Assembly (NCBI RefSeq): GCF_000338295.1
Contig: NZ_ANMO01000142.1
Span: 1 to 39,009 of the forward strand
Length of the DNA: 39,009 bases
Source of the DNA: Rhodopirellula europaea 6C
GTDB lineage: Bacteria; Planctomycetota; Planctomycetia; Pirellulales; Pirellulaceae
Direction of reading: 5' to 3'
Made by a program: the position numbers and the translations under genes. The notes under the pieces were generated by a model, which worked only from the letters and a program-made list of their open reading frames with translations, was not told the DNA's origin and did no database searches. This document shows positions 8,791 through 39,009 of the stretch, in pieces; positions within the stretch are counted from its first letter, which is position 1; each line of letters starts with the position of its first letter.

Positions 8791-11700
8791 ATGAAACCAA
8801 TGGCTACCGAATCGTTTTCTCTTCGAAGCTGTTGCCCTCGAACTTTCTTGCCAGTCTTGTTGGCGGGGATGGTCTGGATATTGGCGGCCGCCGACCACGT
8901 GACTTCCGCAGAGGAAGTCTCGTTCAATCAAGACATCCGCAGCGTGCTATCGGACAAATGCTTTCTGTGTCACGGACCGGATGAATCGACCCGAGAGGCT
9001 GGTTTGCGTTTGGATGTTCGATCCGAAGCGGTCGATGGTGGCGTGATCGTCCCAGGCGATGCCGACGCCAGCGAATTGCTGGCTCGGATCACCAGCGACG
9101 ATCCCGGTTTGGTGATGCCACCGCCCAGCACCGGTAAATCGATCACTGAGGCCGAACGCATCGCGATCGAGCGTTGGGTCGATCAAGGTGCCGCCTATGA
9201 AGAACACTGGGCCTACGTCCCGCCACGAGTCCCAGAGATTCCCAACGTTTCCAATTCGCAGTGGTGTCGCAACGACATCGATCGATTTGTGTTGGCGCGT
9301 TTGGAAGCGGAAGGTCGTTCTCCCAACCCGCCCGCAGACCGGGCGACGTTGCTGCGTCGTTTGTATTTGGACCTGACCGGATTGCCACCCACGCTCGAAA
9401 CGTTGGATCAAGTCGCAATGTCGGACGATCCAGATGCGATGGTGCAGCAGCAAATTGACGCAATGCTCGAATCCGTTTCCTTTGGCGAACGCTGGGCACG
9501 TTGGTGGCTCGACGCGGCACGCTACGCCGATTCGGCGGGCTATGAAAAAGACATGCAGCGGAACGTTTGGTTCTATCGCGACTGGGTGATCGACGCGATG
9601 CACCGCGATATGCCCTACGACCAATTCGTCATCCAGCAGATCGCGGGTGACTTGTTGCCTGGTGCAACACAGAGTCAACGCGTTGCGACCGGGTTTTTGC
9701 GAAACTCAATGACCAACGAAGAAGGCGGTGCCGACCCCGAGCAATTTCGCGTCGAAGGCATGTTTGACCGGATGGATGCGATCGGCAAATCAGTGCTGGG
9801 CATCACCACTCAGTGTGCCCAATGCCACACGCACAAATACGATCCGATCAGCCACCACGAATATTACGAAATGTTCGCGGCGCTGAATGATTTTCACGAA
9901 GCTTGCATCACTGTTTTTACGCCGGAGCAAGCCGAGCAACGTGATCATGTGTTGTCTTCGATTGACGCTGCGACAAAACAGTTTCAACGCGACCACGCTG
10001 ATTGGCGAAGTCTGGTTGCGCAGTGGGCTCGCACACGAGCGGGACGCGATACTACGTGGACGACGCTGCATCCCACGACGGTTCCATTCGAAGGGCAGAA
10101 GTTCAATGTGTTGGAAGATGGTTCCATCGTCAGTGAAAGCTATGCACCGACCAAAGCCAGCAATGACTTCACGCTGACCACGCACGTGGGCACGATCACC
10201 GCGGTGCGATTGGATGCTTTGACCCATCCGCAATTGCCTCGTGGTGGACCCGGACGCAGCATCGACGGCACGGGAGCCTTGACCGAGTTCAAACTCAACA
10301 TCGCTCCGCTTTCAAAAGAAAAAAATGGTGACCGCAAACCAGCGGTATCGGTGAAGTTCGTTCGAGCCTTCAGCGATGCCAACCCGCAACGCAGCAGGTT
10401 GAAACCACAGTACCGCAATCGAGACGCTGACAAAGACGAGCGAGTGGTGGGACCACCGGGATACGCGATCGATGGCGATGAGGCCACGGCTTGGACAACC
10501 GATATCGGACCCGGACGCAGCAATCAATCTCGTCACATCGTCTTTGTGCCCGAGACTCCCGTCGTGATCGATGACGACGCCGAGGTCACTTTCATCTTGG
10601 TGCAAAAGCACGGCGGTTGGAACAGCGACGACAACCAAAATTTCTTGATCGGTCGTTATCGCGTTAGCGTCACCGATGCGGCTGAGTTGCCGGCCCAAGC
10701 GGTTCTCACCGAATCCGAATCCGTTTTGGCGATGAACCCGGATGACTGGACGGACTCACAGGCGAAGCTGGCACTGGCCGCTTGGCATCGTGCGATCGCG
10801 TTGGGTGAATTAGCGGGTGAATCGGCGGGCGATGATACGACCCGCTCGGCCATCGAAAACGATTTGCTGAGTTTGGATTCCAAGATCGAATCGCTTTGGC
10901 AGCAATTCCCAGAGACAACCACGCAACTGGTCGCGCAGGCCACCCAGCGGCCTCGCGAAACGTTTGTGTTCTCACGTGGCGACTTCTTGAGTCCGACCGA
11001 TGCAGTGCAGCCTGACGCACCTGACTTCTTGCACGCGATGCCGAACGATGGTGCACCGGACCGGCTGCGATTCGCGAAATGGTTGGTGGCCAATGACTCA
11101 CCGACCACCGCGCGAGTGATCGTCAATCGAATGTGGCAGGCATACTTCGGTCGTGGTTTGGTCTCGACGCCGGAAGATTTTGGTTTTCAATCGTCCGCTC
11201 CGAGTCATCCGGAGTTGCTGGATTACCTGGCGACTGAATTGATGCAAAACGGTTGGCGACTCAAACACATTCATCGTTTGATTGTTGAGTCAGCGACTTA
11301 CCGTCAATCATCCATCGCTCCCGCGGATGCTTGGCGAGATGACCCAGACAATGAGTTGCTCGCCCGTGGACCACGACATCGCGTCGAAGCCGAGATGGTT
11401 CGTGATTTGGCGCTGTCGGTCAGTGGGTTATTGAATGAATCCGTGGGTGGACCGAGCGTTTATCCGCCGGCACCAGCATTTCTGTTTGAGCCACCAACCA
11501 GCTACGGTCCCAAGATTTGGAATACCTCGACAGGTACCGACCAGTACCGTCGCAGTCTGTACGTGCATCAGTACCGCAGCATCCCGTATCCGCCGCTGCA
11601 AGTTTTCGACGCACCCAAAGGCGATGCGGCTTGTGTTCGTCGCGAACAGAGCAACACGCCGCTTCAGTCTTTGGTGTTGATGAATGAACCGCAGTTCGTT

Positions 11701-12009
11701 GACGCAGCAAGGGCTTTCGCGGCACGTATTCTTCGCGAATCGCCAGACGATGATGCGGAACGAATTCAATTCGCGTTTCGATTGTGCACAAGCCGCGTGC
11801 CTGATGACGAGGAAGTTCAGATCTTGCTTCGGTTGCTACAAGAGCAACGGGAACACATCGCCGATGGCAACCTGGACCTGCAGGAACTGCTGGGGGTGCC
11901 CGCGGGGTTGTGCCATCAGTTGACCGGATTCGAGGCGACCGAGTTGGCGGCATGGATGACCGTCAGTCGCACGATTTTGAACTTGGATGAAACGATCACC
12001 AAATCATGA
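8791..12009 (+). CDS. Planctomycete cytochrome c / DUF1549 / DUF1553 protein
   Basis: A 1072-residue exported protein with the PSCyt1-PSCyt2-PSD1 architecture that is abundant in planctomycetes and has no established function. An N-terminal signal segment (about residues 15-40) precedes a cytochrome-c-like domain with haem motif CFLCH (57-61) and a possible Met ligand in LVMPPP. DUF1549 follows from about 155 (RFVLARLEAEG...) and carries a second haem motif CAQCH (342-346) near its end. A beta-rich middle section (about 420-620) contains a discoidin-like phrase, AIDGDEATAWTTD. DUF1553 fills about 750-1020 (KWLVAND, NRMWQAYFGRGLV, HPELLDYLA). ATG start at 8791; another ATG at 8800 is possible. 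Its stop overlaps the DUF1501 start. Confidence 0.92.
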   Translation: MKPMATESFSLRSCCPRTFLPVLLAGMVWILAAADHVTSAEEVSFNQDIRSVLSDKCFLCHGPDESTREAGLRLDVRSEAVDGGVIVPGDADASELLARITSDDPGLVMPPPSTGKSITEAERIAIERWVDQGAAYEEHWAYVPPRVPEIPNVSNSQWCRNDIDRFVLARLEAEGRSPNPPADRATLLRRLYLDLTGLPPTLETLDQVAMSDDPDAMVQQQIDAMLESVSFGERWARWWLDAARYADSAGYEKDMQRNVWFYRDWVIDAMHRDMPYDQFVIQQIAGDLLPGATQSQRVATGFLRNSMTNEEGGADPEQFRVEGMFDRMDAIGKSVLGITTQCAQCHTHKYDPISHHEYYEMFAALNDFHEACITVFTPEQAEQRDHVLSSIDAATKQFQRDHADWRSLVAQWARTRAGRDTTWTTLHPTTVPFEGQKFNVLEDGSIVSESYAPTKASNDFTLTTHVGTITAVRLDALTHPQLPRGGPGRSIDGTGALTEFKLNIAPLSKEKNGDRKPAVSVKFVRAFSDANPQRSRLKPQYRNRDADKDERVVGPPGYAIDGDEATAWTTDIGPGRSNQSRHIVFVPETPVVIDDDAEVTFILVQKHGGWNSDDNQNFLIGRYRVSVTDAAELPAQAVLTESESVLAMNPDDWTDSQAKLALAAWHRAIALGELAGESAGDDTTRSAIENDLLSLDSKIESLWQQFPETTTQLVAQATQRPRETFVFSRGDFLSPTDAVQPDAPDFLHAMPNDGAPDRLRFAKWLVANDSPTTARVIVNRMWQAYFGRGLVSTPEDFGFQSSAPSHPELLDYLATELMQNGWRLKHIHRLIVESATYRQSSIAPADAWRDDPDNELLARGPRHRVEAEMVRDLALSVSGLLNESVGGPSVYPPAPAFLFEPPTSYGPKIWNTSTGTDQYRRSLYVHQYRSIPYPPLQVFDAPKGDAACVRREQSNTPLQSLVLMNEPQFVDAARAFAARILRESPDDDAERIQFAFRLCTSRVPDDEEVQILLRLLQEQREHIADGNLDLQELLGVPAGLCHQLTGFEATELAAWMTVSRTILNLDETITKS

Positions 12010-13493
12010 AGTCTTTCAACATGTCTTACGCTCAACCGATCCGTCCAAATTCTGCCGACCCATCTCGATTCGCTATGGGATTGGATTTGTTACGTCGACG
12101 ATGGTTCCTGCAGCAGTGCGGACTCGGGTTGGGACACATTGCGCTGACGAGCTTGATGGCCGAAGCCGGAGACCTGGAACTGGCAGGCCCGGATCGGTCG
12201 GCGGTGGATCCCATGGCACCGAAGGCTCCGCATTTCCCCGCGAAAATCAAGAACGTCATTTTGTTGTTCATGGGCGGCGGACCCAGCCAGTTCGAAATGT
12301 TCGACTACAAACCAGCGCTGGAGCGGCTGGATGGAACCTTGCCGCCACCCGAGTTGCTGGATGGTTATCGAGCCGCGTTCATCAATCCCAATTCCAAATT
12401 GCTGGGACCCAAGTTCAAGTTTGAAAAGAAGGGGTCAGCCGGCACGCACATCAGCGAGTTGTTGCCTCACACCGCCGGTATGCTCGATGACATTTGTCTG
12501 ATTCGGTCGATGAAGACCGACGCGTTCAATCATGCTCCCGCGCAGTTGATGATGAGCACCGGTTCGCAGCAGTTCGGTCGGCCGAGCATGGGATCTTGGA
12601 CCACCTATGGGCTCGGCAGCGAGTCTCGCGATTTGCCTGCTTACGTTGTGTTCAACAGCGGCAAGAAGGGACCGAGTGCTGGAGCTGGAAATTGGAACTC
12701 GGGTTTCCTGCCGTCGTTGCATTCGGGCGTCGAGTTCCGAAGCAGCGGTGATCCGGTGCTGTATCTTTCCAACCCGCCCGGCATGAGCGATTGGTCACAA
12801 CGTCAATCGTTGCAGACCGTCAACGAGCTGAACCGGCGACGCTTGGACGTGGTCGGTGATCCCGAAATCGCCACTCGCATCAACGGCTATGAGATGGCAT
12901 ACCGGATGCAATCGAGTGCCCCCGAAGCGATGGCACTGTCCGATGAGCCAGAACACATCTTGAAGTTGTACGGCGCCGAACCCGGCAAGATGTCATTTGC
13001 AAACAACTGTTTGTTGGCGCGACGTTTGGTCCAACGAGGCGTCCGTTTTGTGCAGTTGTTCCATGAGTCATGGGATCAGCACGGTGGTTTGACGGGAGGC
13101 TTGAAGCAGAATTGTGGCGACACCGATCAGGCTTGTGCCGCTTTGGTGAAGGACTTGAAGCAACAAGGCATGTTGGATGAAACGCTGGTGATTTGGGGCG
13201 GTGAGTTTGGCCGCACCCCAATGGTTCAAGGAGGCAACGACGGTCGCGATCACCATCCCAATTCGTTCAGCATGTGGATGGCCGGCGGTGGGCTGAAGTC
13301 GGGCTTGGCTTACGGACAAACCGATGAGCTGGGGTTCGATGTCGCGGAGAACCCGGTGCACGTGCATGACTTGCACGCGACCATTCTGCACTTGCTTGGG
13401 TTTGACCACAAACAACTGACCTATCGTTTCCAAGGTCGTGATTATCGACTGACCGATGTGCACGGCGAGCTCGTTCACGACATCTTGGCGTGA
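12006..13493 (+). CDS. DUF1501 protein (alkaline-phosphatase/sulfatase-like fold)
   Basis: A 495-residue DUF1501 protein, the standard genomic partner of DUF1549/DUF1553 cytochromes in planctomycetes. The N-terminus has a twin-arginine-like stretch LLRRRWFLQQCGLGLG (about 28-43), suggesting Tat export. The family is distantly related to the alkaline phosphatase/sulfatase superfamily; metal-site-like segments seen here are GGGPSQFEMFDYKP, SWDQHGG and GGEFGRTP with GRDHHPNSFS. The actual reaction is unknown. The ATG at 12006 overlaps the upstream TGA (ATGA), so the two are translationally coupled; an internal ATG at 12021 is an alternative. A hairpin terminator lies 26 bp after the stop. Confidence 0.92.
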   Translation: MKSFNMSYAQPIRPNSADPSRFAMGLDLLRRRWFLQQCGLGLGHIALTSLMAEAGDLELAGPDRSAVDPMAPKAPHFPAKIKNVILLFMGGGPSQFEMFDYKPALERLDGTLPPPELLDGYRAAFINPNSKLLGPKFKFEKKGSAGTHISELLPHTAGMLDDICLIRSMKTDAFNHAPAQLMMSTGSQQFGRPSMGSWTTYGLGSESRDLPAYVVFNSGKKGPSAGAGNWNSGFLPSLHSGVEFRSSGDPVLYLSNPPGMSDWSQRQSLQTVNELNRRRLDVVGDPEIATRINGYEMAYRMQSSAPEAMALSDEPEHILKLYGAEPGKMSFANNCLLARRLVQRGVRFVQLFHESWDQHGGLTGGLKQNCGDTDQACAALVKDLKQQGMLDETLVIWGGEFGRTPMVQGGNDGRDHHPNSFSMWMAGGGLKSGLAYGQTDELGFDVAENPVHVHDLHATILHLLGFDHKQLTYRFQGRDYRLTDVHGELVHDILA

Positions 13494-29092: not shown

Positions 29093-29166
29093 GGGCGATT
29101 AGCTCAGTTGGTTAGAGCGCCACGTTGACATCGTGGAGGTCACAGATTCGAGTTCTGTATCGCCCA
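29093..29166 (+). tRNA. tRNA-Val (anticodon GAC)
   Basis: A 74-base complete cloverleaf. The acceptor stem is GGGCGAT paired with ATCGCCC, discriminator A. The D-arm stem is GCTC/GAGC. The anticodon stem CCACG/CGTGG encloses the loop TTGACAT, anticodon GAC, which decodes GUC and GUU valine codons. A variable loop AGGTC and T-arm ACAGA-TTCGAGT-TCTGT follow. CCA is not encoded. A strong intrinsic terminator begins 6 bases downstream. Confidence 0.97.
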
Positions 29167-29611
29167 CTCCCAAAAACCCCGCAATGCCTAGTGTTTTGTG
29201 GGGTTTTTTCGTGTCCGCATCGGTTTCAGCGCCATCGTCGGTTTGGTCAGGAAGGGACAGAAACGGCATGTTTTGAACCTCTTGGACTGCATCAGGTGCA
29301 AGCAGTGGTGCAAGCTTTCGCGGCTCGGTTTCGTCGTCCGAATCCTCTGATTCGTTGGGAATAGCAGCCGAACGGAAAATCGAAAGCGTCTCCATCGCTT
29401 CGGCTTTTTCGAGCATCCACGCACTGACCAGGACTGTTCGGCGGTGTTTGCAATTGCGGCATGGATTTCTAACGCCGTCGCAAGACGCTGGAGGCGATTG
29501 ACGAATCAACCGGCTGCCACGATCGTTGATGTCCCTTCGGGGGTCGGGGTACCGCCAAGCATTCTCTGCGAGGGTAGCAGTGGCCTTGAGCATTTCATCG
29601 AGTAGATCCAT
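29099..29611 (-). CDS. Doubtful hypothetical ORF reading through the tRNA antisense
   Basis: An open frame of 170 codons from an ATG at 29611. I do not recognise the product. It has a short cysteine cluster, CDGVRNPCRNC (about 44-54), and an acidic stretch (NESEDSDDETE). Its last ~20 residues (ESVTSTMSTWRSNQLS) come entirely from the antisense strand of tRNA-Val, so the end of the frame cannot be a selected protein tail. It may be a real small gene that lost its own stop, a decayed remnant next to a tRNA, or chance. If it is not real, 29210-29641 is an empty spacer between the tRNA terminator and the glycan operon. Confidence 0.3.
   Translation of the reverse strand: MDLLDEMLKATATLAENAWRYPDPRRDINDRGSRLIRQSPPASCDGVRNPCRNCKHRRTVLVSAWMLEKAEAMETLSIFRSAAIPNESEDSDDETEPRKLAPLLAPDAVQEVQNMPFLSLPDQTDDGAETDADTKKPHKTLGIAGFLGVGDTELESVTSTMSTWRSNQLS
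29172..29209 (+). terminator. Intrinsic terminator after tRNA-Val
   Basis: The stem AAAAACCCCGCAA (29172-29184) pairs with the TTGTGGGGTTTTT side (29196-29208) and ends in a run of six T (29204-29209). It lies 6 bases after the tRNA discriminator base. Confidence 0.88.
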
Positions 29612-29641: not shown

Positions 29642-30619
29642 TCACTCCGTAAGCTCCGCGTATCTGTCCCAGTGATCCTGGAGCATGTCGACGTCCATTG
29701 CTTTTGATGACACCAGATAGCGGTAACGCGAAACGTATTTCTGTCCTGGGCTGATCTCGAACGGGCCTTCGACCATGGGGGCAAAGCAGAAATACGGTTT
29801 GTTCGGATGGATGCGAACGGGCTGGGGGGCACGGAAGTTTTTTGGGCTGCAGAAAACGGCAGCTGAAACGTCCTGACCATCGACTTTGCCACTAAAGGCG
29901 ACCCAGTTGGGGCGAGTGTGGTTGCCTTCCCAGCGGTCTTTTCCGTCACTTGTCAGATACTGCACATCGCCTGGATGAATACTGTGGTCTTCCTGCTCTC
30001 TCAGCCACTGGGAGTTACCGCGGATCGCCATTCCACCGTAGTGGTATTCCGCTAAACTCAGCGGCTTGTCGGCCACACCATGCTGAACGCTAACGATGTC
30101 AAAGAGAAAATATTCCGCCGGGGTTTGATGAACAGTGACGGTCCATAACTCGTGGAGTACGTCGATCCATTTGTCACCGTCTTTCACCATGAACGCGTGC
30201 TTCACGCTGAAGGCGACCTTCCGCTCTTCTCGGCTCAGGTTGACCACCTCGCGGAACTCGACTTTGCCGAGACCCTTTGCTTGGTTCCAAAAGTCGACAT
30301 TCATTCCGTCGAACTTGCTCTTCACCCAAGCAAAAAACAACGCATGCTGGTGAGCGTGATCCGCAGGGTAATCGCCAGTGAGTTCCTGACCCGTCGGAGT
30401 GTAGACCGGATGAATGTAGCCGCTACGCTTAAAGTACTCCGGAGTCCCTTCCGGAACTGGCTGCGCTTTCTTAATGTACTGGAGAACTGGTTTTCCGCGC
30501 AGCATGACGCGGATCGTATCATCCGTCTCGGTCAGCTTTAGGTCATCGCCAGCGGTTGCCTGCGTGGTAACACTGAATGAAGACAGCAGAAAGAACAGAG
30601 CGATTGATGTTTGCTTCAT
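29642..30619 (-). CDS. DUF6807 ('PmoA') family exported protein
   Basis: A 325-residue secreted protein of the DUF6807 family, often labelled 'methane oxygenase PmoA'; that label is misleading, because it has no relation in architecture to the membrane methane monooxygenase subunit. A signal peptide covers residues 1-23 (ATA-GD). A histidine-rich segment, DHAHQHALFFAWVK (about 88-101), and the paired EYHYGGMAIRG are typical. The protein looks like an all-beta fold. DUF6807 genes commonly lie with sulfatases, DUF1080 and Gfo/Idh genes in planctomycetes, so a role in carbohydrate breakdown is inferred. It is the last gene of the operon, 84 bp after a sulfatase. Confidence 0.82.
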   Translation of the reverse strand: MKQTSIALFFLLSSFSVTTQATAGDDLKLTETDDTIRVMLRGKPVLQYIKKAQPVPEGTPEYFKRSGYIHPVYTPTGQELTGDYPADHAHQHALFFAWVKSKFDGMNVDFWNQAKGLGKVEFREVVNLSREERKVAFSVKHAFMVKDGDKWIDVLHELWTVTVHQTPAEYFLFDIVSVQHGVADKPLSLAEYHYGGMAIRGNSQWLREQEDHSIHPGDVQYLTSDGKDRWEGNHTRPNWVAFSGKVDGQDVSAAVFCSPKNFRAPQPVRIHPNKPYFCFAPMVEGPFEISPGQKYVSRYRYLVSSKAMDVDMLQDHWDRYAELTE

Positions 30620-30703
30620 TGTGGTACGGTTTTCATTGTTGTCAAAACTTCAAAGGCTTCTTCTTTTTGGGTCCCGAACAGGCGGGAAATTGCGCACGTG
30701 TGG

Positions 30704-32257
30704 CTACCGTTCATCTTCTTCCAGTGGCCGACTTCCTTTGAAGGCTCCCCAGTTTTTTCGCTTTCGGTAGTCTTTGTCCTGCTCATAAACCTTCAGGTCA
30801 GCACCAGGGTTCAGCTTGGGGATTCTGGCTCCGACCTTTTCAAAGTAGGTCATCATATCAGTGTAGAGCTTCTGGTGTTTGTCCGGATGCCGCGCGGCGA
30901 TATTGGTCACCTCGCCCATGTCGGTGGACAAGTCAAACAGCATCGGAATTTCAGGGCGATCGTAGAAATGAAGCACTTTGAGATCGCCGGACACGACGGC
31001 GGAGTGCGGCATGCTCGATCGGTAGTGCGGGTAGTGGAAATAGAGATTCCGCTTGAGGAAGGCTTCCGTCGGCGACTGCCCTTCCATGTAGGAAGCGAGA
31101 CTTACGCCGTCGATGTTCTTCAGTGCGGTCGGATCACCGCCGGCCCAGTCGACGAATGTCGGCAGGAAATCGTAGTTGACGACATTGCCCGTGAAGACAG
31201 AACCTGCCTTGATGCCGGGACCTCGGACGATCATCGGGACGCGGATGCCACCCTGCCAGACCCACCACTTGGCGGCATGGTGTGGCTGAGTCTGCCCCTC
31301 CGTCAACTGAAGTTCTTTGTGTCGGTAGCCGTTGTCCGACACGAGTGCGACATACGTGTTGTCTTCGATTCCCAGCTCACTTATGCGCTGGAGCACGGCT
31401 CCGATGCGTCCGTCGAGATCGTCGCCCATGCCCAGCCAGATGGCTGGATCTTCCTTGCGTTTTACGGTTTCGGCTGTCTTCCCGATCTTCTGGTAGTAAG
31501 CCTGCACGAGAGGGTGTCGCGTGTATTTCTCGCGTGTTGCCGGCAGACACTCACGACCTTCGTGCATCGCATAGTGGGAGATCTGCAGATAGAACGGCTG
31601 GCCGGCTTGTGCCTGCTCGGTCATGAAACCGAGCGCTTTCTCAGTGACGCTGAACATCAGCTTGGGATCAGTCAGGTCGTCGGGCAGGCGTTGGTTTGCG
31701 CCAGCGGGCAGCGTATTGCCTGGCTTGTTGCTGGTGTCACCGTCGTGCAGCACGTACCCCTCGTCGCCGGGATCGCCTCGCATGTGCCACTTACCAATGT
31801 GGGCGCTGACATAACCGAGCGGCTTCAAGGCTTCGGGGATTGTCACCGCGTCCGCGTCAATCGTCATGTCCGAGACGCAAGGAATCACCGGAAAGTCGGG
31901 GTAGCCCTTTTCGTCGTAGTAGTCCTGTCCGCGATCGTTCATGAACACGGTGAAGCCGTTCCGCGGCGAGGATTGTCCGGTCTGCACGCAGACTCGCGAC
32001 GGAGAACACTGCGGCGAAGCATACGCGCCGGTGAACTTCATACCCTCACGAGCCAGCTGCTCGACATTCGGCATCTGCAAGACCGGCATACGCGAGTTGT
32101 CCATGCCGTCGCGCATCGGAATTGGCGTACCGTTCCACGCCCAATCGTCGATGAAAAGGAGCACAATGTTTGGCTTCTCTGCGGCAACACAGTTGCCGGC
32201 CAACAACCATCCAACGCATAAGAGCAAAACTGCTGGGGTGATTCTGGTACTACTCAT
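30704..32257 (-). CDS. Sulfatase, FGly type (arylsulfatase A-like)
   Basis: A 517-residue exported sulfatase that should remove sulfate esters from a glycan. A signal peptide ends near residue 26 (VAA-EK). Metal-binding Asp residues lie in [10 protein letters not shown] (37-38). The formylglycine motif is CSPSR at 84-88; Cys84 must be oxidised to FGly by a sulfatase-modifying enzyme encoded elsewhere. Further metal-site sequence is [11 protein letters not shown], and [13 protein letters not shown] is also family-typical. ATG at 32257 with AGGAAG six bases upstream; the open frame reaches 32413. The active site matches S1-family sulfatases; the sulfate position attacked cannot be read. Confidence 0.93.
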
Positions 32258-32336
32258 TGCGGCTTCCTGACTGGTGCTGTGTGCAAGGCTATTTTCATGG
32301 TTGGTGATATTCACTCGTTTGGATTGTCGCTCGCGA

Positions 32337-33038
32337 TTATTTCTTCTCGATCCGACGGACGCGAATCGACCGAAACGAAACGTGGCGTGCTGTCTCCGGT
32401 GACTTCTTGACACCGTGTACCTGCACTGCGATCACACCCGAGGGATACTTCGCGTAGGCTTCGGAATCAGTGACATCCCCCACCTGTTTGCCATTGATCC
32501 ATGTTTGAATTCGCGGCCCTTTGGCCAAGACTCGAAGTGTGTTCCAGTGGCCGTTCACCATCGCTTCATTGCGAATCAGTTCTTCTTTCGGCGTTATCCA
32601 TGCGCCGTTTCCCTGGTTGAAAATGTAGCCACTGCGCCCGGGAGATTTCCCAATATCCACCTGTGGTCCGTGCATGGATGCACGAACTTTTCCGTTATCG
32701 CCCGTTCGCGTCAGTTGAGTCCGAATTTGAATGCCTGAATTAAGGTCCGTGTCGTGGAGTTTGACTTCCAATTCGAGTTCAAAGTCGCCGTACGATTCAA
32801 CGGTGTGCAAGAACTGAGTCTGGCTGGAGCTGGTGCCAACAATGACTCCGTCGGACAACGCGAATTGTGTGTTGTCACGTGATGGTTTCCAACCTTCGAG
32901 GCTCTTGCCATCGAACAAGGTCACCCAATCACCAGCGAACGCGGAGCCACTGCAGAACGAGCTCACAAGAAGTACGAGGATGGAGATATGGCGTAGCGTC
33001 GTTGAACGAACAGAACGCCCCAGTAAATCTGCAGTCAT
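32337..33038 (-). CDS. DUF1080 exported protein (3-keto-glycoside hydrolase-like)
   Basis: A 233-residue secreted DUF1080 protein with a concanavalin-like beta-sandwich pattern. A signal peptide ends near residue 35 (AFA-GD). The opening [16 protein letters not shown] and the later [45 protein letters not shown] and GVIAVQVHG are diagnostic. Members of DUF1080 (now named 3-keto-disaccharide hydrolase) cleave glycosides after oxidation at C3. The ATG at 33038 has AGGA about 8 bases upstream. It lies 14 bp after a Gfo/Idh oxidoreductase, the class of enzyme that makes 3-keto sugars; that functional link is my inference. Confidence 0.9.
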
Positions 33039-33052
33039 TTGAATTCCTGTTG

Positions 33053-34327
33053 TTAAACACTAGGGAGAGAAAATTCAGGACGTCGTTCCTTGGTCAACAT
33101 TGCATTGGCTGCCTTATCGCCGATGATCTGCTCGTTGTCCGCGTCCCAATTGATCGTGCGACCGGTAATCCGACAGATATTGATCAGGTGCGCGACGCTG
33201 CTAATCAGATGGCCGACTTCCACCGGTGCATTGGGCTGTTCACGGGTTTCGATGCAGTCCAGCCAGTTTGTGACGTGCGATTCCGTTTGTGACCCGGTGA
33301 ATGGAGCGAGTAAGTCCTTCGGATTGCACGCGAAGCGTCCTCGATTGATTTCGAGTTTGCCCTGCTGGCCGATGAATATGCCGCCGAACGCGGGACCATC
33401 CGTACTTTCCAGCCGAATGACAGTGCCGTCGGGATAGTACAGTCGAACCCCACGATCCCAGTAACTCTTCGCTTCGGTGGTGGGTTCGATCCGCGTTGGC
33501 GCGACGTTCTCCCACCCCATGGCAAGGTGAACCATGTCCAGTGCGTGCGAACCACGATCGCAAATGGAGCCGCCTGTGAATGCGTCGTAACTCCGCCACC
33601 TACGATGAAGTCGTTCGTGATAGTCAAGCAGCTTCGCTTGGTCACAAAAATGATTCCAATCCATGCCTTCGGGAATGGATTGCTGCTCGAGACCAGTAGC
33701 AGGTTGAGAGCCCGAGTAATTCTTGACGAGGATCGTGTTGACGTTTCCGATTCCACCTTCGCGGACGAATTTGCAGGCATACTGATTGATCGGTGTGCTG
33801 CGTTGTTGCGTACCAACCTGCAGCACACGTTTGTGTTTTCGCACTGCTTCGACCAGGGCGCGGCCTTCCGGAATACTGAAGCTGAGTGGCTTTTCCGCGT
33901 AGATATCCAGGCCTCTGGCACAAGCGATGATTGCCGCACGTACGCGCACGTGATCGGGCGTTGCGATCATCACCGCGTCGAGCTCTTCAGAGTCGAGCAT
34001 CTGCTCGTAGTTCTGATACCGCTTCCAAGAATCACCGGCCCTTGGATCGTTTTTGTTGTCAGCCGCAAGGGCATCGATCTGCGGCAGGTAGCAATCGCAG
34101 ACGGCAACCAATTTGGCTCGATGGGATTCGCGACCCAAGGCACGCGTCAGCCATTTGGCTCGCCCTCCGGCGCCAATTAGTCCGACACGTAACTTGTCGC
34201 TGCCGGATGTTGACGGTGCGGCATAGATCATTGATGGCACCAGACCGGACGCAGCCAGCGTGGTGGTCGCGCCGATCGATTTCAACGCCGTTCGACGTGA
34301 AGGGTGATTATGGGGTGAAGGGTTCAT
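33053..34327 (-). CDS. Tat-exported Gfo/Idh/MocA oxidoreductase
   Basis: A 424-residue NAD(P)-dependent sugar oxidoreductase. A twin-arginine signal SRRTALK (10-16) followed by a hydrophobic stretch to about residue 37 predicts Tat export, so it is probably folded with its cofactor before leaving the cytoplasm. The Rossmann domain has [10 protein letters not shown] (48-57) and AVCDCY; the conserved AEKPLSF (EKP 145-147) supplies the catalytic Lys. The C-terminal domain has [20 protein letters not shown], carrying the family His. ATG at 34327 with AGGA upstream. It is placed between a sulfatase and DUF1080 genes. The substrate is unknown; sugar-C3 oxidation is a hypothesis. Confidence 0.92.
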
Positions 34328-34375
34328 GCTTGATCCTGTTTGTTCAGCTTGTTTTCATGATGTGAAAGGACTGGA

Positions 34376-35839
34376 TTATTTCGCCTTCGCTCTTCGAGAC
34401 TCCCTGCGCTTCTTGGTCAGGGCGGAGGGAAGGGGGTGAGCGGCCTCGGCGAAACTAGGGACCAGGCCGCGAAGTTTCTTGATGGTGGCGGCGTAGTCCG
34501 GGTTGTCGATCTGGTTGGTCCATTCGTGAGGATCCTTGGTCGTGTCGTAGAATTCCTCTTCTTTCACCCCGTAGCGGGAGTAGCGTCCGAGTTCATGGCG
34601 GATGCTGATGTAGGCCAGGTCCGTTTTGGTTTTATCGCACAATCCGGTGATGGCGGTGCTTTCCCACGGAGTTTTCGGGTCTTTGAGCAGCGGAACTAAG
34701 GAGCGTCCATCGATGTACGCGGGCGGCGTGAGTCCGCAGAGTTCGGCAAGAGTCGGATAGATGTCCATCAGGGAAACGAAGCGTTCAGACACACCCCCGG
34801 CTTCGGTGAATCCCGGCGCGCGAAACATCAATAAGACGTGTGTTCCCTCCTCCCAAAGGGTTGTCTTTTGCCAGTGATGTTTTTCACCGAGGTGAAACCC
34901 GTGATCGGTGAGAAAGACCACAATGGTGTTGTCCTTATAGGGGCTCCCTTCGAGGGCATCGAGGACACGTCCTATCTGCGTGTCGACATAAGTGGTCGTC
35001 GCGAGGTAAGCCTGCACGGCCTCTTTATGTTTGCCAGCTTCAATGACCTTGTCGGCAAAGCTCCCAATCCCATCGCTCACCGCTTTGGCCAGCGGAGGAA
35101 GGTCATCCAGGTCACTCTCTTTCAACTCGGGCAGAACAATCTGCTCCAGAGGGTACATGTCAAAATACTTCTTCGGGACATACCAGGGCATGTGCGGATT
35201 AAACGTGCCGTAGGCCAGGAAGAATGGCTTGTCGTGTTGTTTCTCCAAGACCGCGATGGCCTTGTTGGCCCCGCCGGTGTCATTCATTTGCTCTTCAGTG
35301 AGATGGATTGTTCCCCAATCCTGTTCACCGCCACTGAGTCCTGCCAGAGGCGCGCCGGGAGGAGCCGGGTCCCTTTTGTGGCCGACTTTATCGTCCCAGT
35401 GTTCTTTCTGGTCCCAGCCGTGAGTGATTTTGCCGTACCCGAAGGTGTTGTAACCGTCGCTCTTGAACAGCCCGGCCAGCGACAGTACGTCATCCCGGTT
35501 CACCACCTCACTTTTGTTGATCGTCTGCGCGTTGTTGTAGATACCCGATTTCCAGGACGCTACGCCAGAAAAGAACGCGGTGCGAGAAGGCGAACAAACC
35601 GGCGCTGCGGTGTAGGCTCGCGTGAAGTTAACACCACTGGCGGCAAACTTTCGCAGATTGGGGGCAACGACTTTGCCCGCGTAGCGATCGGCATCATCCA
35701 GCAGCCAACTGTTCAAATCATCGGCAACCAGAAACAGCACGTTCATCGGCTTGTCCGGCTCAGCCGCATCGCAGGCCGAATGTGTGGAAAGCGACATGAT
35801 CGCGCTGGCGAAGATTGATAATACGAGCGTGAAACGCAT
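34376..35839 (-). CDS. Sulfatase, iduronate-2-sulfatase-like
   Basis: A 487-residue exported sulfatase. Signal peptide 1-25 (DAA-EP). Metal Asp pair in [12 protein letters not shown] (40-41). FGly motif CSPSR at 82-86 within [16 protein letters not shown]. The later [25 protein letters not shown] segment, with its HLGEKxxWxKxxLWE pattern, is typical of the iduronate-2-sulfatase and choline-sulfatase side of the family rather than classic arylsulfatases. That would fit a uronic-acid-containing glycan, but it is only a subfamily hint. The C-terminus is strongly basic ([12 protein letters not shown]). Its ATG follows directly on the TAA of the upstream sulfatase, with no bases between them. Confidence 0.92.
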
Positions 35840-37207
35840 TTAATGTTTAATCCTTTTCTTGACGTTGTTCTTTGTTTCGGGAACTGGTGCACCCGGGAGT
35901 CTGCCGATCGGTCGGCTGTTGGCTTCCAGTTCCCTGACCGCTGCGTCCATCCGACGACGCAGGTCTGCGACGATTTCGGGATGGTCGGCTGAGACGTCTC
36001 GCGTCTCACCTGGATCGTCCTGCAGGTTGAATAGTGATCCTGCCGGAGCTGATGGTCGCTTTCCCTCGCGTCCACTTTTGCCTCCTGGCTTCAATTCCCG
36101 AACAAGCAGCTTCCACTTACCGTGACGAATCACCGAGCCGGGGACGATGAATGATTCGTGAATCGGCTTCTCAACCTGTTCACCCCTCAGGTAAGGCAGA
36201 ATGTTTCGGCCGTCGATCACACGGTCGCCCGGCGCGGCGACGCCAGCGATCGCACAGAACGTCGGCAGCAGGTCGATGATCCCCGTGATCTGACGGTTCG
36301 TCGAACCTGGCGCGATCGTACCCGGCCAGCGCATAATGCACGGGACACGAATGCCACCCTCGAAATCGGTCCACTTGCCGTCGCGAAGCGGGCCAGCATC
36401 GCCGCCGTCGATCCCGAGCACTGGGCCGTTGTCCGACGCGAAGATGAACAAGGTGTTCTCAGCAATACCCTGCTCGTCGAGAACTTTCATCAGTTCACCG
36501 ACCTGCCAGTCGATTTCGCGAATCACGTCACCGTAGGTGCCTCGCCGCGACGTACCTCTGAAACGCTCATTGGGAATCCACGGCGTGTGCGGTAGCGGCG
36601 ATGCGCAGTAGAGAAAGAACGGGTGTTCTTTGTTTTGCTTGATGAAGCCAACCGCGGCGTCGAGCAGTTTCGGCGAATGCTGTCCGTCGGTCTTTCGCTT
36701 GATCGACTCAATCCGCTCGAGGTTACGATAAATGCCGGTGCCCTGATCGAGATCGATCATGAAGCCGTGGAAGAAATCGAATCCGTGCCGAGTCGGGTTA
36801 AATGCGTCCCATTCACCAAGATGCCACTTGCCGACGATCCCCGTGGTGTAGCCGGCTGTTTTCAGAAGCTCGGGCGTCGTGACTTCATCGGAGTGAATTC
36901 CGATGCGGTCTCTGTTGTAGATGACTTTGGTGCAACCAGCACGATGCGCGTGCGAACCCGTCATGAACGCCAGACGAGTCGGCGAGCACCGCTGATGCAC
37001 ATAGAAGTCCGTGAACATCATGCCTTGCCGACACAGCCGATCGATGTTCGGCGTTTCAAGCGAATCGGAGCCGTAGCAGCCCAGGTCACCGTAACCCTGA
37101 TCGTCGGTCAGAAAGACAACGATGTTCGGCTTATCAGCAGCTTCGACAAGCCCCGGGAATGCCAGAACAACGGAGCAAATCACGTGTTTGGAAATGCCAA
37201 TATTCAT
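35840..37207 (-). CDS. Sulfatase, arylsulfatase-like
   Basis: A 455-residue exported sulfatase. Signal peptide about 1-23 (EAA-DK). Metal pair in VFLTDDQGYGDLGCYG (35-36). FGly motif CSPTR at 74-78 in HQRCSPTRLAFMTGSH. GKWHLGEW supplies the catalytic Lys/His region, and FASDNGPVLG the second metal site. It has the WTDFEGGIRVPCIMRWPG segment common to arylsulfatase-type S1 enzymes. ATG at 37207 overlaps the TAA of the preceding sulfatase (TAATG), and its own TAA abuts the next sulfatase ATG, so three sulfatases are translationally linked. The substrate is unknown. Confidence 0.93.
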   Translation of the reverse strand: MNIGISKHVICSVVLAFPGLVEAADKPNIVVFLTDDQGYGDLGCYGSDSLETPNIDRLCRQGMMFTDFYVHQRCSPTRLAFMTGSHAHRAGCTKVIYNRDRIGIHSDEVTTPELLKTAGYTTGIVGKWHLGEWDAFNPTRHGFDFFHGFMIDLDQGTGIYRNLERIESIKRKTDGQHSPKLLDAAVGFIKQNKEHPFFLYCASPLPHTPWIPNERFRGTSRRGTYGDVIREIDWQVGELMKVLDEQGIAENTLFIFASDNGPVLGIDGGDAGPLRDGKWTDFEGGIRVPCIMRWPGTIAPGSTNRQITGIIDLLPTFCAIAGVAAPGDRVIDGRNILPYLRGEQVEKPIHESFIVPGSVIRHGKWKLLVRELKPGGKSGREGKRPSAPAGSLFNLQDDPGETRDVSADHPEIVADLRRRMDAAVRELEANSRPIGRLPGAPVPETKNNVKKRIKH

Positions 37208-38637
37208 TATTCTTGCGCTACTCCCGCCGGACGTAAGTTCTTTCTGAGATCTGTCTCGAAGGTTGAAAGCTGTCGTTTCAAACGCTGCGCGATCTCGGGA
37301 TGCACATCAATCAGGTTCGTCTGCTCACCGATGTCGTCGCGCAGGTTGTAAAGCGTCTCGACGTCGACGTTCCTCGACTTGCTGTCTCCGGCGGATTGTC
37401 GCTTTGATTTCTTTTCCTTTGCGGGCTTCTCGGTGGCGACGCGATACTTCCAGTCGCCGACGCGGATTGCCTGAACACCTCGACCTCGCAGATAGTAGAC
37501 GGCCTTGTGAGGCGACTTCGCATCCGACTTTCGGGTAAGCAGCGGCCAGATGTCTTTTCCGTCAATCACTCGGTCGTCAGGGACTACACCGACCGCGATT
37601 CGCGTCAGCGTCGGCAGCAGATCCATGCCAGTGATCGGTTCGTCAGACTCGGTTCCGGCGGGAATCATTCCCGGCCAGCGAGCGACGAACGGAACTCTTA
37701 CGCCGCCTTCGAGCGTCGAGCTTTTGCCGCCTTTCAACGGACCGGCGCTGCCGCCTTTGCCGGTATTGGGGCCGTTGTCTGATGTGAAGATGACTAGCGT
37801 GTTATTATCAAGGCCGAGTTCTTTCAGAGACCGTAGGATCTCTCCGGTGCTCCAGTCGAGTTCCTGGATCGTGTCGCCGTAGATACCTCGCTTGCTGCTA
37901 CCTACAAACTTTTCGGAAGCATGTAGCGGGATGTGCGGCATGTTATGGGCCAGGTAGACAAAGAACGGTTTGTCCTTGTTTCGGGTGATGAAGCGTATCG
38001 TCTCCCGCGTGTACCGTTGAGTGAACTGCGTCTGGTCTGCGGGAACTTCGATGACGATGTTGTCTTCGATCAGCGGACATGCAGCCGTTTCTCGCTTAAG
38101 TATCCCATCACACGAATAGCCTTCACGATATTTGCAGTCCAACGCATACGTCTTGGTATTTGGATAGTAGAACTGGTTGTTGGAGGCGGGGGTTCCATAC
38201 CAATAATCAAATCCGTGCTTTAGCGGCTGAAACATGTCTTGGTTGCCGAGATGCCACTTGCCAATGATGGCCGTCGCATAGCCCTGATCCTTCAGCAACT
38301 CCGGAAGCGTGATCTCGTCAGGATTCAATCCGTGGTTGTTCCGAGGAAACATGACACCACCGATGCCAACGCGAGTCGAATGGCTCCCAGTCATCAGCGC
38401 CGCGCGTGTCGGAGAACAAACGGGTGAAACATAAAAGCTGTTAAACTTCGCTCCCTCAGCCGCCATGCGATCAATACTTGGCGTGGCGATATCGTCGGCC
38501 CCATAGCACGAAAGATCACCATAGCCGAGATCATCAGCGAGAATCACGATGACATTGGGTTTCTGCGATTCGGATTGAGCATGCGAATGCGCGGCCGCCA
38601 AGCAAAGTACGGCAACTGCTGAAAGAATTCGATTCAT
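37207..38637 (-). CDS. Sulfatase, arylsulfatase-like
   Basis: A 476-residue exported sulfatase. A classic signal peptide starts at the chosen ATG ([22 protein letters not shown]). Metal pair in [16 protein letters not shown] (35-36). FGly motif CSPTR at 74-78 in [24 protein letters not shown] and [10 protein letters not shown] complete the active site pattern. A cysteine-bearing insert ([16 protein letters not shown]) is present. The frame extends to an ATG at 38679, 10 bp after the lyase stop, which has GGAAG only two bases before it; this longer N-terminus is possible but makes an unusual signal. It resembles the sulfatase just downstream, so an old duplication is possible. Confidence 0.92.
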
Positions 38638-38689
38638 TTGTCTTGTTGTTCTGTACCAATTGTGTTCGCGTTGACTCATCGCTTCCGGT

Positions 38690-39009
38690 TCAGTCGTCTG
38701 AATGTGTCACAACTAAGCGGGAAAACGAAACCCGAGCACCTTCGCTCACTTCTCCTGCGTTGTCCTGAGGGTAGGCGCCGGCTTTGAAGTAGAAAGTCTG
38801 GTCTGCCCAGGCCCTGTCGTTTTCCAAAACGTTCTCTTCCTGTGTTGTGCCATTGACGGTGATGGCAAGCACACCGCCTTGAAGCCTGATTGTCCAATCG
38901 ATGTCGCTGCCTCGCTCAACATCAGGAAACGTGAGCTTTTTGTCTTTACCATTGGTCGGGCTTTCCTTCACCAGAGCTTCGATGCGGCCTTTGTAGTACT
39001 GAAGCTTGA
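38690..39009 (-). CDS. PL7-type alginate lyase, C-terminal part (cut by window edge)
   Basis: The last ~106 codons of a gene running off the right edge; the frame is open to 39009 and no true start is in the window. The visible part has [13 protein letters not shown], a [17 protein letters not shown] strand pair and, most tellingly, [14 protein letters not shown], the YFKAGxYxQ signature of polysaccharide lyase family 7 (alginate lyase 2). PL7 enzymes cleave uronate-containing chains by beta-elimination, mostly alginate. The catalytic RxE and QIH motifs would lie in the missing N-terminal part. It is the most upstream gene seen in the sulfatase operon. PL7 assignment is good for a fragment; the substrate is not proven. 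Confidence 0.82.

What the first reader, a model, noticed from the sequence alone, without database searches (positions are those of the whole stretch)
29642..39009. Uronate lyase, four sulfatases, Gfo/Idh, DUF1080 and DUF6807 in one operon
Eight minus-strand genes with gaps of 0-84 bp combine a PL7-type lyase, four FGly sulfatases, a Tat oxidoreductase, a DUF1080 protein and a DUF6807 protein, with export signals on every complete one. PL7 lyases normally act on alginate, which is not sulfated, so pairing one with four sulfatases suggests a sulfated uronate glycan or an unusual PL7 specificity. No SusC/SusD-like transporter is visible. The gene families are known; the combined pathway is inference.
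Basis: partly seen in the sequence, partly recalled or inferred. Interest (0 to 1): 0.72.

Follow-up and report, generated by a model that had tools for sequence, protein, structure and literature searches.

The report
Mobile sulfatase island with lyase fusion
A planctomycete bacterium carries a probably transferred gene island, with its own regulator, that looks built to take apart a sulfated acidic sugar polymer, and in its relatives the lyase is one half of a protein whose other half looks made to remove sulfate groups.

Summary
The eight-gene run is real. Its "PL7 lyase" is cut by the contig end. In four related records with the whole gene it is the C-terminal domain of one 750-823-codon ORF whose N-terminal half is a formylglycine-type sulfatase. 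These PL7 domains form one clade with catalytic motifs intact. In Planctomycetes bacterium SV_7m_r the operon has 17 genes with 10 sulfatase domains, headed by an ECF sigma factor and a FecR-LamG protein with one hydrophobic stretch. The window genome's matching operon start lies at the end of contig C90. Of 27 exact copies of a promoter-like motif in 241 family genomes, 16 lie before this sigma gene, 3 before a sulfatase of the set and 8 elsewhere. The block is 95.3% DNA-identical to SV_7m_r, against 77% for infC, and lies beside tRNA-Val and an integrase remnant. Best reading: a self-regulated, horizontally acquired operon for a sulfated, acylated uronate glycan. Substrate and all activities are inferred. 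Sulfatase/alginate-lyase multi-domain proteins were mentioned in 2016 (PMC4807772): a new variant of a known kind.

The parts
38690..39009 (-). C-terminal 105 aa of a PL7 (PF08787) domain, cut by the contig end; in relatives the C-terminal domain of a sulfatase-PL7 fusion
   Evidence: PF08787 71.3 bits, cut-off 29.7; 99% aa identity to the end of the 760-aa ORF L010:7708-9990, which holds PF00884 at 37-353 and PF08787 at 536-757
37207..38679 (-). sulfatase S1, formylglycine motif CSPTR
   Evidence: PF00884 219.5 bits; motif; best solved-structure matches are steryl- and arylsulfatases
35840..37207 (-). sulfatase S2, CSPTR; overlaps S1 by 1 bp
   Evidence: PF00884 203.7 bits; 41% identical to S1; not searched against solved structures
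34376..35839 (-). sulfatase S3, CSPSR
   Evidence: PF00884 165.6 bits; best solved match 6hhm arylsulfatase 1.9e-49
33053..34327 (-). Gfo/Idh oxidoreductase with twin-arginine N-terminus
   Evidence: PF01408, PF19051; best solved matches 8tdf and 8tdh dehydrogenases; 116.3 bits against NF058561 glycoside 3-dehydrogenase, cut-off 750
32337..33038 (-). DUF1080 (PF06439, 3-keto-disaccharide hydrolase) protein
   Evidence: 136.2 bits; best solved match 4jqt, 6.4e-33
30704..32257 (-). sulfatase S4, CSPSR (ORF open from GTG at 32413, likely ATG start 32257)
   Evidence: PF00884 117.4 bits; start; best solved match 9fo1 kappa-carrageenan sulfatase S1_16
29642..30619 (-). DUF6807 (PF14100) protein with a hydrophobic N-terminus, last gene of the run
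   Evidence: 182 bits; kept in L010, L013, L015, L019 at 74-85% identity; no credible solved relative
29099..29611 (-). tyrosine-integrase remnant at the island's edge, catalytic domain missing
   Evidence: 105 aa at its C-terminus are 80% identical to the C-terminus of the 541-aa integrase (PF00589 at 293-435) at the same place in G160; the remnant itself has no Pfam match
29093..29167 (+). tRNA-Val (GAC) next to the island
   Evidence: ARAGORN; in G160 an integrase stands at this tRNA, and a 137-bp stretch that includes the tRNA's 3' part recurs at 91% about 9.7 kb further on

Best explanation
This is the 3' half of a horizontally acquired, self-regulated polysaccharide-degradation operon of planctomycetes. 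Shown from sequence: an ECF sigma gene and a FecR-LamG gene head the operon (in SV_7m_r and L140; in the window genome on contig C90). A promoter-like motif (GTTAAY-R-AT-N12-TCGGCA) lies before the sigma gene and, in SV_7m_r and L009/L140, again before an internal sulfatase. In SV_7m_r ten sulfatase domains, a SASA esterase, a Gfo/Idh, a PF01261 TIM-barrel protein and a DUF1080 protein follow, and one of the sulfatases is joined to a PL7 lyase. The block is near-identical between genera whose core genes differ strongly. Inferred: the outside LamG domain senses a glycan and frees the sigma factor, which starts transcription from the motif. Sulfatases and esterases strip the polymer, and the fusion enzyme desulfates and then breaks the exposed 4-linked uronate chain by beta-elimination. 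The Gfo/Idh, TIM-barrel and DUF1080 proteins then cleave the oligosaccharides by C3 oxidation and elimination or hydration outside the cytoplasm. The likely substrate is a sulfated, O-acylated uronate-containing glycan.
For: Fusion: 4 distinct records with one open frame and intact FGly, RSELRE, QIH and YFKAG motifs; one PL7 clade, support 1.0, whose nearest relative sits between sulfatase genes. Operon: same order in SV_7m_r and L140 as far as the latter's contig goes; operon start on G000 contig C90. Regulation: 16 of 27 exact motif hits in 241 genomes lie directly before this sigma gene and 3 before a sulfatase of the set; the backward-pattern control gives 3 hits; one hydrophobic stretch of transmembrane length in 7 of 7 FecR-LamG proteins. 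Transfer: 95.3% DNA identity over 9353 bp to SV_7m_r against 77% for infC and 65-75% for other coding stretches of the flank; tRNA-Val and integrase remnant. Esterases: SASA, BD-FAE fused to a sulfatase in C90.
Against: No activity, expression or substrate was tested. In the window genome the fusion itself is not seen: only the last 105 aa are held, and the DNA search found the rest of the fusion gene on no contig. 5 of 7 close standalone PL7 relatives have no recognised sulfatase neighbour. 10 of the 14 loci with S1 at 70% or more show no PL7 in the stretch held, some of them truncated, so the lyase is not essential to the block. The Gfo/Idh scores far below the 3-dehydrogenase cut-off. The nearest solved sulfatases of the fusion and of S4 act on carrageenan-type galactans, and two relatives hold an agarase-like gene pair, which points to galactans as much as to uronans. 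8 of the 27 motif hits have no member of the set beside them. No terminal repeat was found on the C90 side.
Confidence: 0.6

Rival explanations
1. The PL7 half is an ordinary alginate lyase. The island degrades brown-algal cell wall, in which alginate is embedded with sulfated fucans; the sulfatase half and the others act on the sulfated polymer, and the fusion only co-delivers two activities.
For: Best solved matches of the PL7 domain are alginate lyases A1-II' (2.9e-47) and PA1167 (1.4e-36); QIH and YFKAG motifs as in alginate lyases (meaning of the motifs recalled); 5 of 7 close standalone relatives lack recognised sulfatase neighbours.
Against: Among the island proteins scanned no fucosidase and no second alginate-lyase family appeared; the rest of the genome was searched only for PF08787, which has one further match on C119. 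The nearest relative of the fusion PL7 sits between sulfatase genes.
Confidence: 0.3
2. The target is mainly a sulfated galactan (agar-, porphyran- or carrageenan-like) with minor uronate parts, and PL7 is an accessory for uronate substituents.
For: FusS best matches a 4S-kappa-carrageenan sulfatase (6prm, 1.6e-76) and S4 an S1_16 kappa-carrageenan sulfatase. Two relatives hold a pair of agarase-like proteins between S1 and S2, and the window genome has such genes on another contig (L094).
Against: The agarase-like pair has no match in the island stretches L010, L129, L140 and L153, and the window's own operon genes are all of other families. S3 matches a different arylsulfatase (6hhm). PL7 has no known role on galactans (recalled).
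Confidence: 0.2
3. The sulfatase-PL7 joining is a by-product of frequent sulfatase gene fusion in planctomycetes with no functional meaning.
For: Sulfatase fusions are common there: double sulfatases in 5 of 14 FusS-relative regions examined, sulfatase-esterase in C90, and the 2016 report of multi-domain sulfatases (PMC4807772, section 14 read).
Against: Four distinct proteins keep both halves with intact catalytic motifs and a similar charged linker, as expected under selection for both.
Confidence: 0.12

Closest known systems
Multi-domain sulfatases of Porphyra-associated planctomycetes (PMC4807772; section 14 and passages read)
   Same: Reports sulfatase genes joined to other domains, naming alginate lyase and esterase among them, a double sulfatase, and operon-like sulfatase clusters with turnover and horizontal transfer.
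   Different: What I read describes no PL7 fusion in detail, no dedicated sigma factor, no promoter motif and no tRNA-linked island; its supplements were not seen.
PL7 alginate lyases such as A1-II' (2cws) and PA1167 (1vav)
   Same: Sequence family and catalytic motifs; 2.9e-47 and 1.4e-36.
   Different: Here joined to a sulfatase and set in a sulfatase operon; substrate unknown.
Family S1 sulfatases: the kappa-carrageenan 4S-sulfatase 6prm and an S1_19 sulfatase (9hh3)
   Same: Residues 31-446 of the fusion align with 6prm.
   Different: Carries a C-terminal lyase; family assignment by SulfAtlas was not run.
C3-oxidation glycan-breakdown pathway of Bacteroides (doi 10.1038/s41586-024-07574-y; not held, content recalled) and BT2157 3-ketotrehalose hydrolase (PMC9007349, passages)
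   Same: Gfo/Idh, DUF1080 and a PF01261 TIM barrel occur in one cluster in SV_7m_r; the TIM barrel also in L140 (with the start of the Gfo/Idh, then contig end) and L139 (67%; contig ends before those genes).
   Different: The Gfo/Idh scores 116 bits against a cut-off of 750; no activity known; set among sulfatases.
Bacteroidetes polysaccharide utilization loci
   Same: Clustered degradative genes with an ECF/FecR-type pair.
   Different: No SusD in the genome.

Membership tests
Polysaccharide lyase family 7 | Alginate_lyase2 (PF08787) over cut-off | tested here: met
   71.3 bits in the window fragment; 194.6 bits for the whole domain in SV_7m_r; cut-off 29.7
Polysaccharide lyase family 7 | catalytic motifs R-x-E-L-R, Q-I-H, Y-F-K-A-G (role recalled) | tested here: met
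   present in all 6 fusion rows, 4 distinct proteins; the window fragment shows only YFKAG
Polysaccharide lyase family 7 | beta-elimination of a uronan | not testable with these tools
   needs enzyme assay
Formylglycine (S1) sulfatases | PF00884 over cut-off and C-x-P-x-R motif | tested here: met
   4 of 4 window sulfatases and the fusion's N-terminal half
Sulfatase-PL7 fusion in the window genome | one open frame through both domains in G000 | tested here: inconclusive
   the contig holds only the last 320 bp of the gene; fusion seen in 4 related records but not in G000
SusC/SusD-type polysaccharide utilization locus | SusD present | tested here: not met
   PF07980: 0 matches in the assembly; the control genome set rang in 1 of 14
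ECF sigma / anti-sigma regulated operon | ECF sigma gene with membrane anti-sigma at the operon head | tested here: met
   TIGR02989 142.2 bits, cut-off 124.55, for the SV_7m_r copy; PF08281, PF04542, FecR and Laminin_G_3 over cut-off for the G000 C90 copies; one hydrophobic stretch of transmembrane length in 7 of 7; anti-sigma activity not tested
ECF sigma / anti-sigma regulated operon | conserved promoter-like motif before sigma and target genes | tested here: met
   19 of 27 exact motif hits before sigma or a sulfatase of the set, 8 elsewhere; sigma binding not tested
Glycoside 3-dehydrogenase (BT_2158 family) | NF058561 cut-off of 750 bits | tested here: not met
   116.3 bits: a distant relative only
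3-keto-disaccharide hydrolase (PF06439) | PF06439 over cut-off | tested here: met
   136.2 bits, cut-off 26.8; activity not tested
tRNA-borne genomic island | tRNA gene, integrase, direct repeats at both ends | tested here: inconclusive
   tRNA-Val and integrase remnant present; no second copy of the tRNA-end repeat in the C90 stretch; part of the island lies in an assembly gap

The most novel reading that the evidence does not exclude
A planctomycete PL7 lineage has left plain alginate for a sulfated uronan: the fusion removes sulfate and breaks the newly bared uronate bond in one protein. The products are finished outside the cytoplasm by C3 oxidation and elimination rather than by glycosidases, all under one dedicated sigma factor switched by a lectin-bearing anti-sigma factor, and the whole set moves between genera as a unit.
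Probability: 0.25. Interest if true: 0.78.

Novelty: new variant of a known kind. Interest (0 to 1): 0.56.

Why it matters
Planctomycete genomes can hold very many sulfatase genes (122 and 129 full-length ones in two of the three genomes of PMC4807772) whose partners and substrates are mostly unknown. The fusion ties one sulfatase to one lyase in cis, and the sigma-promoter pair gives a sequence signature for finding which sulfatases belong to one pathway, so substrate assignment becomes directly testable with one enzyme and one promoter reporter. It also suggests that such operons cross genera nearly intact.

Tried and rejected
Structure prediction: the DUF6807 alignment (A1) was accepted only after busy replies and was still unfinished; the fusion alignment (A2) was never accepted. 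So there is no model and no fold search. A sequence search of solved structures for DUF6807 gave one chance-level match; the one paper found with that name only counts it. The paper on the C3-oxidation pathway is not held. NCBIfam had no match at E 0.001 for DUF6807, DUF1080 or the PL7 fragment. The terminal-repeat test for the island was negative on the C90 side and in L129 and L130. Blast labels failed (the new query file was not written); repeated. An early script read only part of the loci; repeated. The GH99 hint in L156 (25.9 bits, cut-off 33) was rejected. Rows dropped before the PL7 tree: of 39 loci offered, L128 and L144 gave no match and fell out. A one-mismatch motif hit on C11, inside a long ORF, was set aside as chance. 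The reading of a free-standing lyase gene was rejected from the relatives.
Full report
Observation. The window is the whole of contig C142 of its assembly. At 29642-39009 eight minus-strand genes follow each other with -1 to 84 bp between them. The FGly motif is present in 4 of 4 sulfatases. Six of seven complete proteins have a hydrophobic N-terminus and the seventh a twin-arginine one.

The lyase. A scan of genome contigs with S1 kept 80 loci. In four distinct records (L009=L140, L010, L011=L138, L013=L139) the 105-aa fragment matches the end of one long ORF of 750-823 codons (the longest include uncertain starts). After it come S1, S2, S3 in L009, L010 and L011 as in the window; in L013 DUF6807 stands between S1 and S2. 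In SV_7m_r the protein is 760 aa, with PF00884 at 37-353 (177.8 bits) and PF08787 at 536-757 (194.6 bits), joined by a charged linker. FGly, RSELRE, QIH and YFKAG motifs are intact in all four. Family-wide, 33 of 241 genomes have a PF08787 match (31 over the cut-off) and 2 of them (G193, G212) a fusion-sized frame. In a phylum-wide draw 6 of 392 genomes match, window genome included, and none has a frame over 288 codons. In a tree of 37 rows, some of them duplicates of one record, the fusion PL7s are one clade (support 1.0). Their nearest relative is the standalone PL7 of Stieleria tagensis (0.87), which lies between a double sulfatase and a single one; the strict FGly pattern was found in only one of these three sulfatase domains. 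Of the 7 close standalone PL7s, 2 (L131, L132) have sulfatase neighbours and 5 (L133-L137) have none recognised in the stretches held, which speaks against a firm substrate claim.

Module exchange. Relatives of the fusion protein occur in 37 of 241 family genomes at E <= 1e-100, nearly all of the listed matches over the sulfatase half; only 4 candidates per genome were scored. I took regions around 14 of them: in 5 the sulfatase is fused to a second sulfatase and in 9 it is not. In the window genome another sulfatase of the same operon is fused to a BD-FAE esterase (L153:8115-10403).

The whole operon. In SV_7m_r 17 co-oriented genes run from an ECF sigma gene through FecR-LamG, four sulfatases, a SASA esterase, a fifth sulfatase, a PF01261 protein and the fusion, then S1-S2-S3-Gfo/Idh-DUF1080-S4-DUF6807: ten sulfatase domains. 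L009/L140 has the same order as far as its contig goes. In the window genome the matching start (sigma 77%, FecR-LamG 66%, a sulfatase-esterase, a further sulfatase, then 93% and 96% matches) ends at the end of contig C90. In the related genome G160 a stretch matching C90 (79% over 1231 bp) lies about 12 kb beyond the end of its match to the window flank, so C90 and C142 are probably the two sides of one locus with a gap between them.

Regulation. A motif GTTAAY-R-AT-N12-TCGGCA precedes the sigma gene. The window genome has one exact copy, upstream of its sigma gene, and one one-mismatch copy inside a long ORF. In 241 family genomes there are 27 exact hits in 23 genomes; the backward-pattern control gives 3 hits in 3 genomes. 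16 of 27 lie directly before this sigma gene (75-100% identical), 3 before a sulfatase of the set, and 8 have no set member beside them. In SV_7m_r and L140 a second copy stands inside the operon before a sulfatase. The FecR-LamG proteins have one hydrophobic stretch of transmembrane length in 7 of 7 checked. Sensing and sigma release are inferred.

Transfer. The window block is 95.3% identical in DNA to SV_7m_r over 9353 bp, in a mosaic of about 81-100% per 400-bp step; the last step, which runs past the alignable end, is 62%. infC is 77% identical and other coding stretches of the flank 65-75%; tRNA pieces are higher. The flank is 92% identical to G160 up to window position about 29415, which takes in tRNA-Val and the end of an integrase remnant; the island starts between there and 29642. 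In G160 the same tRNA is followed by an intact integrase, and the tRNA-end sequence recurs about 9.7 kb further on. No such repeat was found in the C90 stretch, so the mode of entry is open. One same-genus genome, G158 (identified with L022's genome by the same motif place), has the S1-S4 block at 79-87% without PL7 in the stretch held.

Mechanism and substrate. The Gfo/Idh is a distant relative of solved dehydrogenases and of the glycoside 3-dehydrogenase model. PMC9007349 (passages) names BT2157, a DUF1080 protein, as a 3-ketotrehalose hydrolase, and another single-domain member as an endo-xanthanase/lichenase, so the family is not uniform. The TIM barrel was seen in SV_7m_r, L140 and L139. 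Nearest solved sulfatases differ between the genes: carrageenan-type for the fusion and S4, aryl/steryl for S1, 6hhm for S3; S2 was not searched. Esterases suggest acylation. A sulfated, acylated uronate glycan fits best, but plain alginate in a sulfated wall or a sulfated galactan remain possible.

Prior work. Listings of searches for PL7-sulfatase links (10 of 10 papers shown, 15 of 26, 15 of 23, 8 of 8) and for ECF-sulfatase links (12 of 18, 7 of 7) showed, in titles and abstract openings, no account of this fusion or regulon. PMC4807772 (section 14 read) already names alginate lyase and esterase domains in multi-domain planctomycete sulfatases. Hence: new variant of a known kind.

Noticed in passing
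L022:5648-8289 and L014:11443-14081: Two neighbouring proteins between S1 and S2, about 27% identical to each other; the three ORFs scanned have no Pfam match, and the first weakly resembles beta-agarases (4bq4, 8.7e-8). Possible undescribed glycosidase family.
   Followed up: partly
L094 (window genome, contig C23): A homologue of that agarase-like protein at 77% identity, with part of a second copy beside it, in the window's own genome.
   Followed up: no
L153:8115-10403 (window genome, contig C90): A sulfatase fused to a BD-FAE esterase, 762 aa, at the head of the same operon.
   Followed up: partly
L186:8414-9163 (window genome, contig C119): A second, standalone PL7 of a distant clade; its neighbours were listed but not scanned for families.
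   Followed up: partly
L016: SV_7m_r holds a second, diverged copy of the sigma-FecR-S1-S2-S3 cluster about 146-155 kb from the first.
   Followed up: partly
L015: Stieleria sedimenti cluster: two sulfatases 98-99% identical to SV_7m_r beside genes at 68-89% to the window, a mosaic that suggests recombination between islands.
   Followed up: no
L009: The contig is filed as an uncultured actinobacterium, but its genes are near-identical to planctomycete ones; likely a binning or naming error.
   Followed up: no
window 8791-13493: An ordinary planctomycete pair: cytochrome/DUF1549/DUF1553 protein followed by a DUF1501 protein.
   Followed up: no
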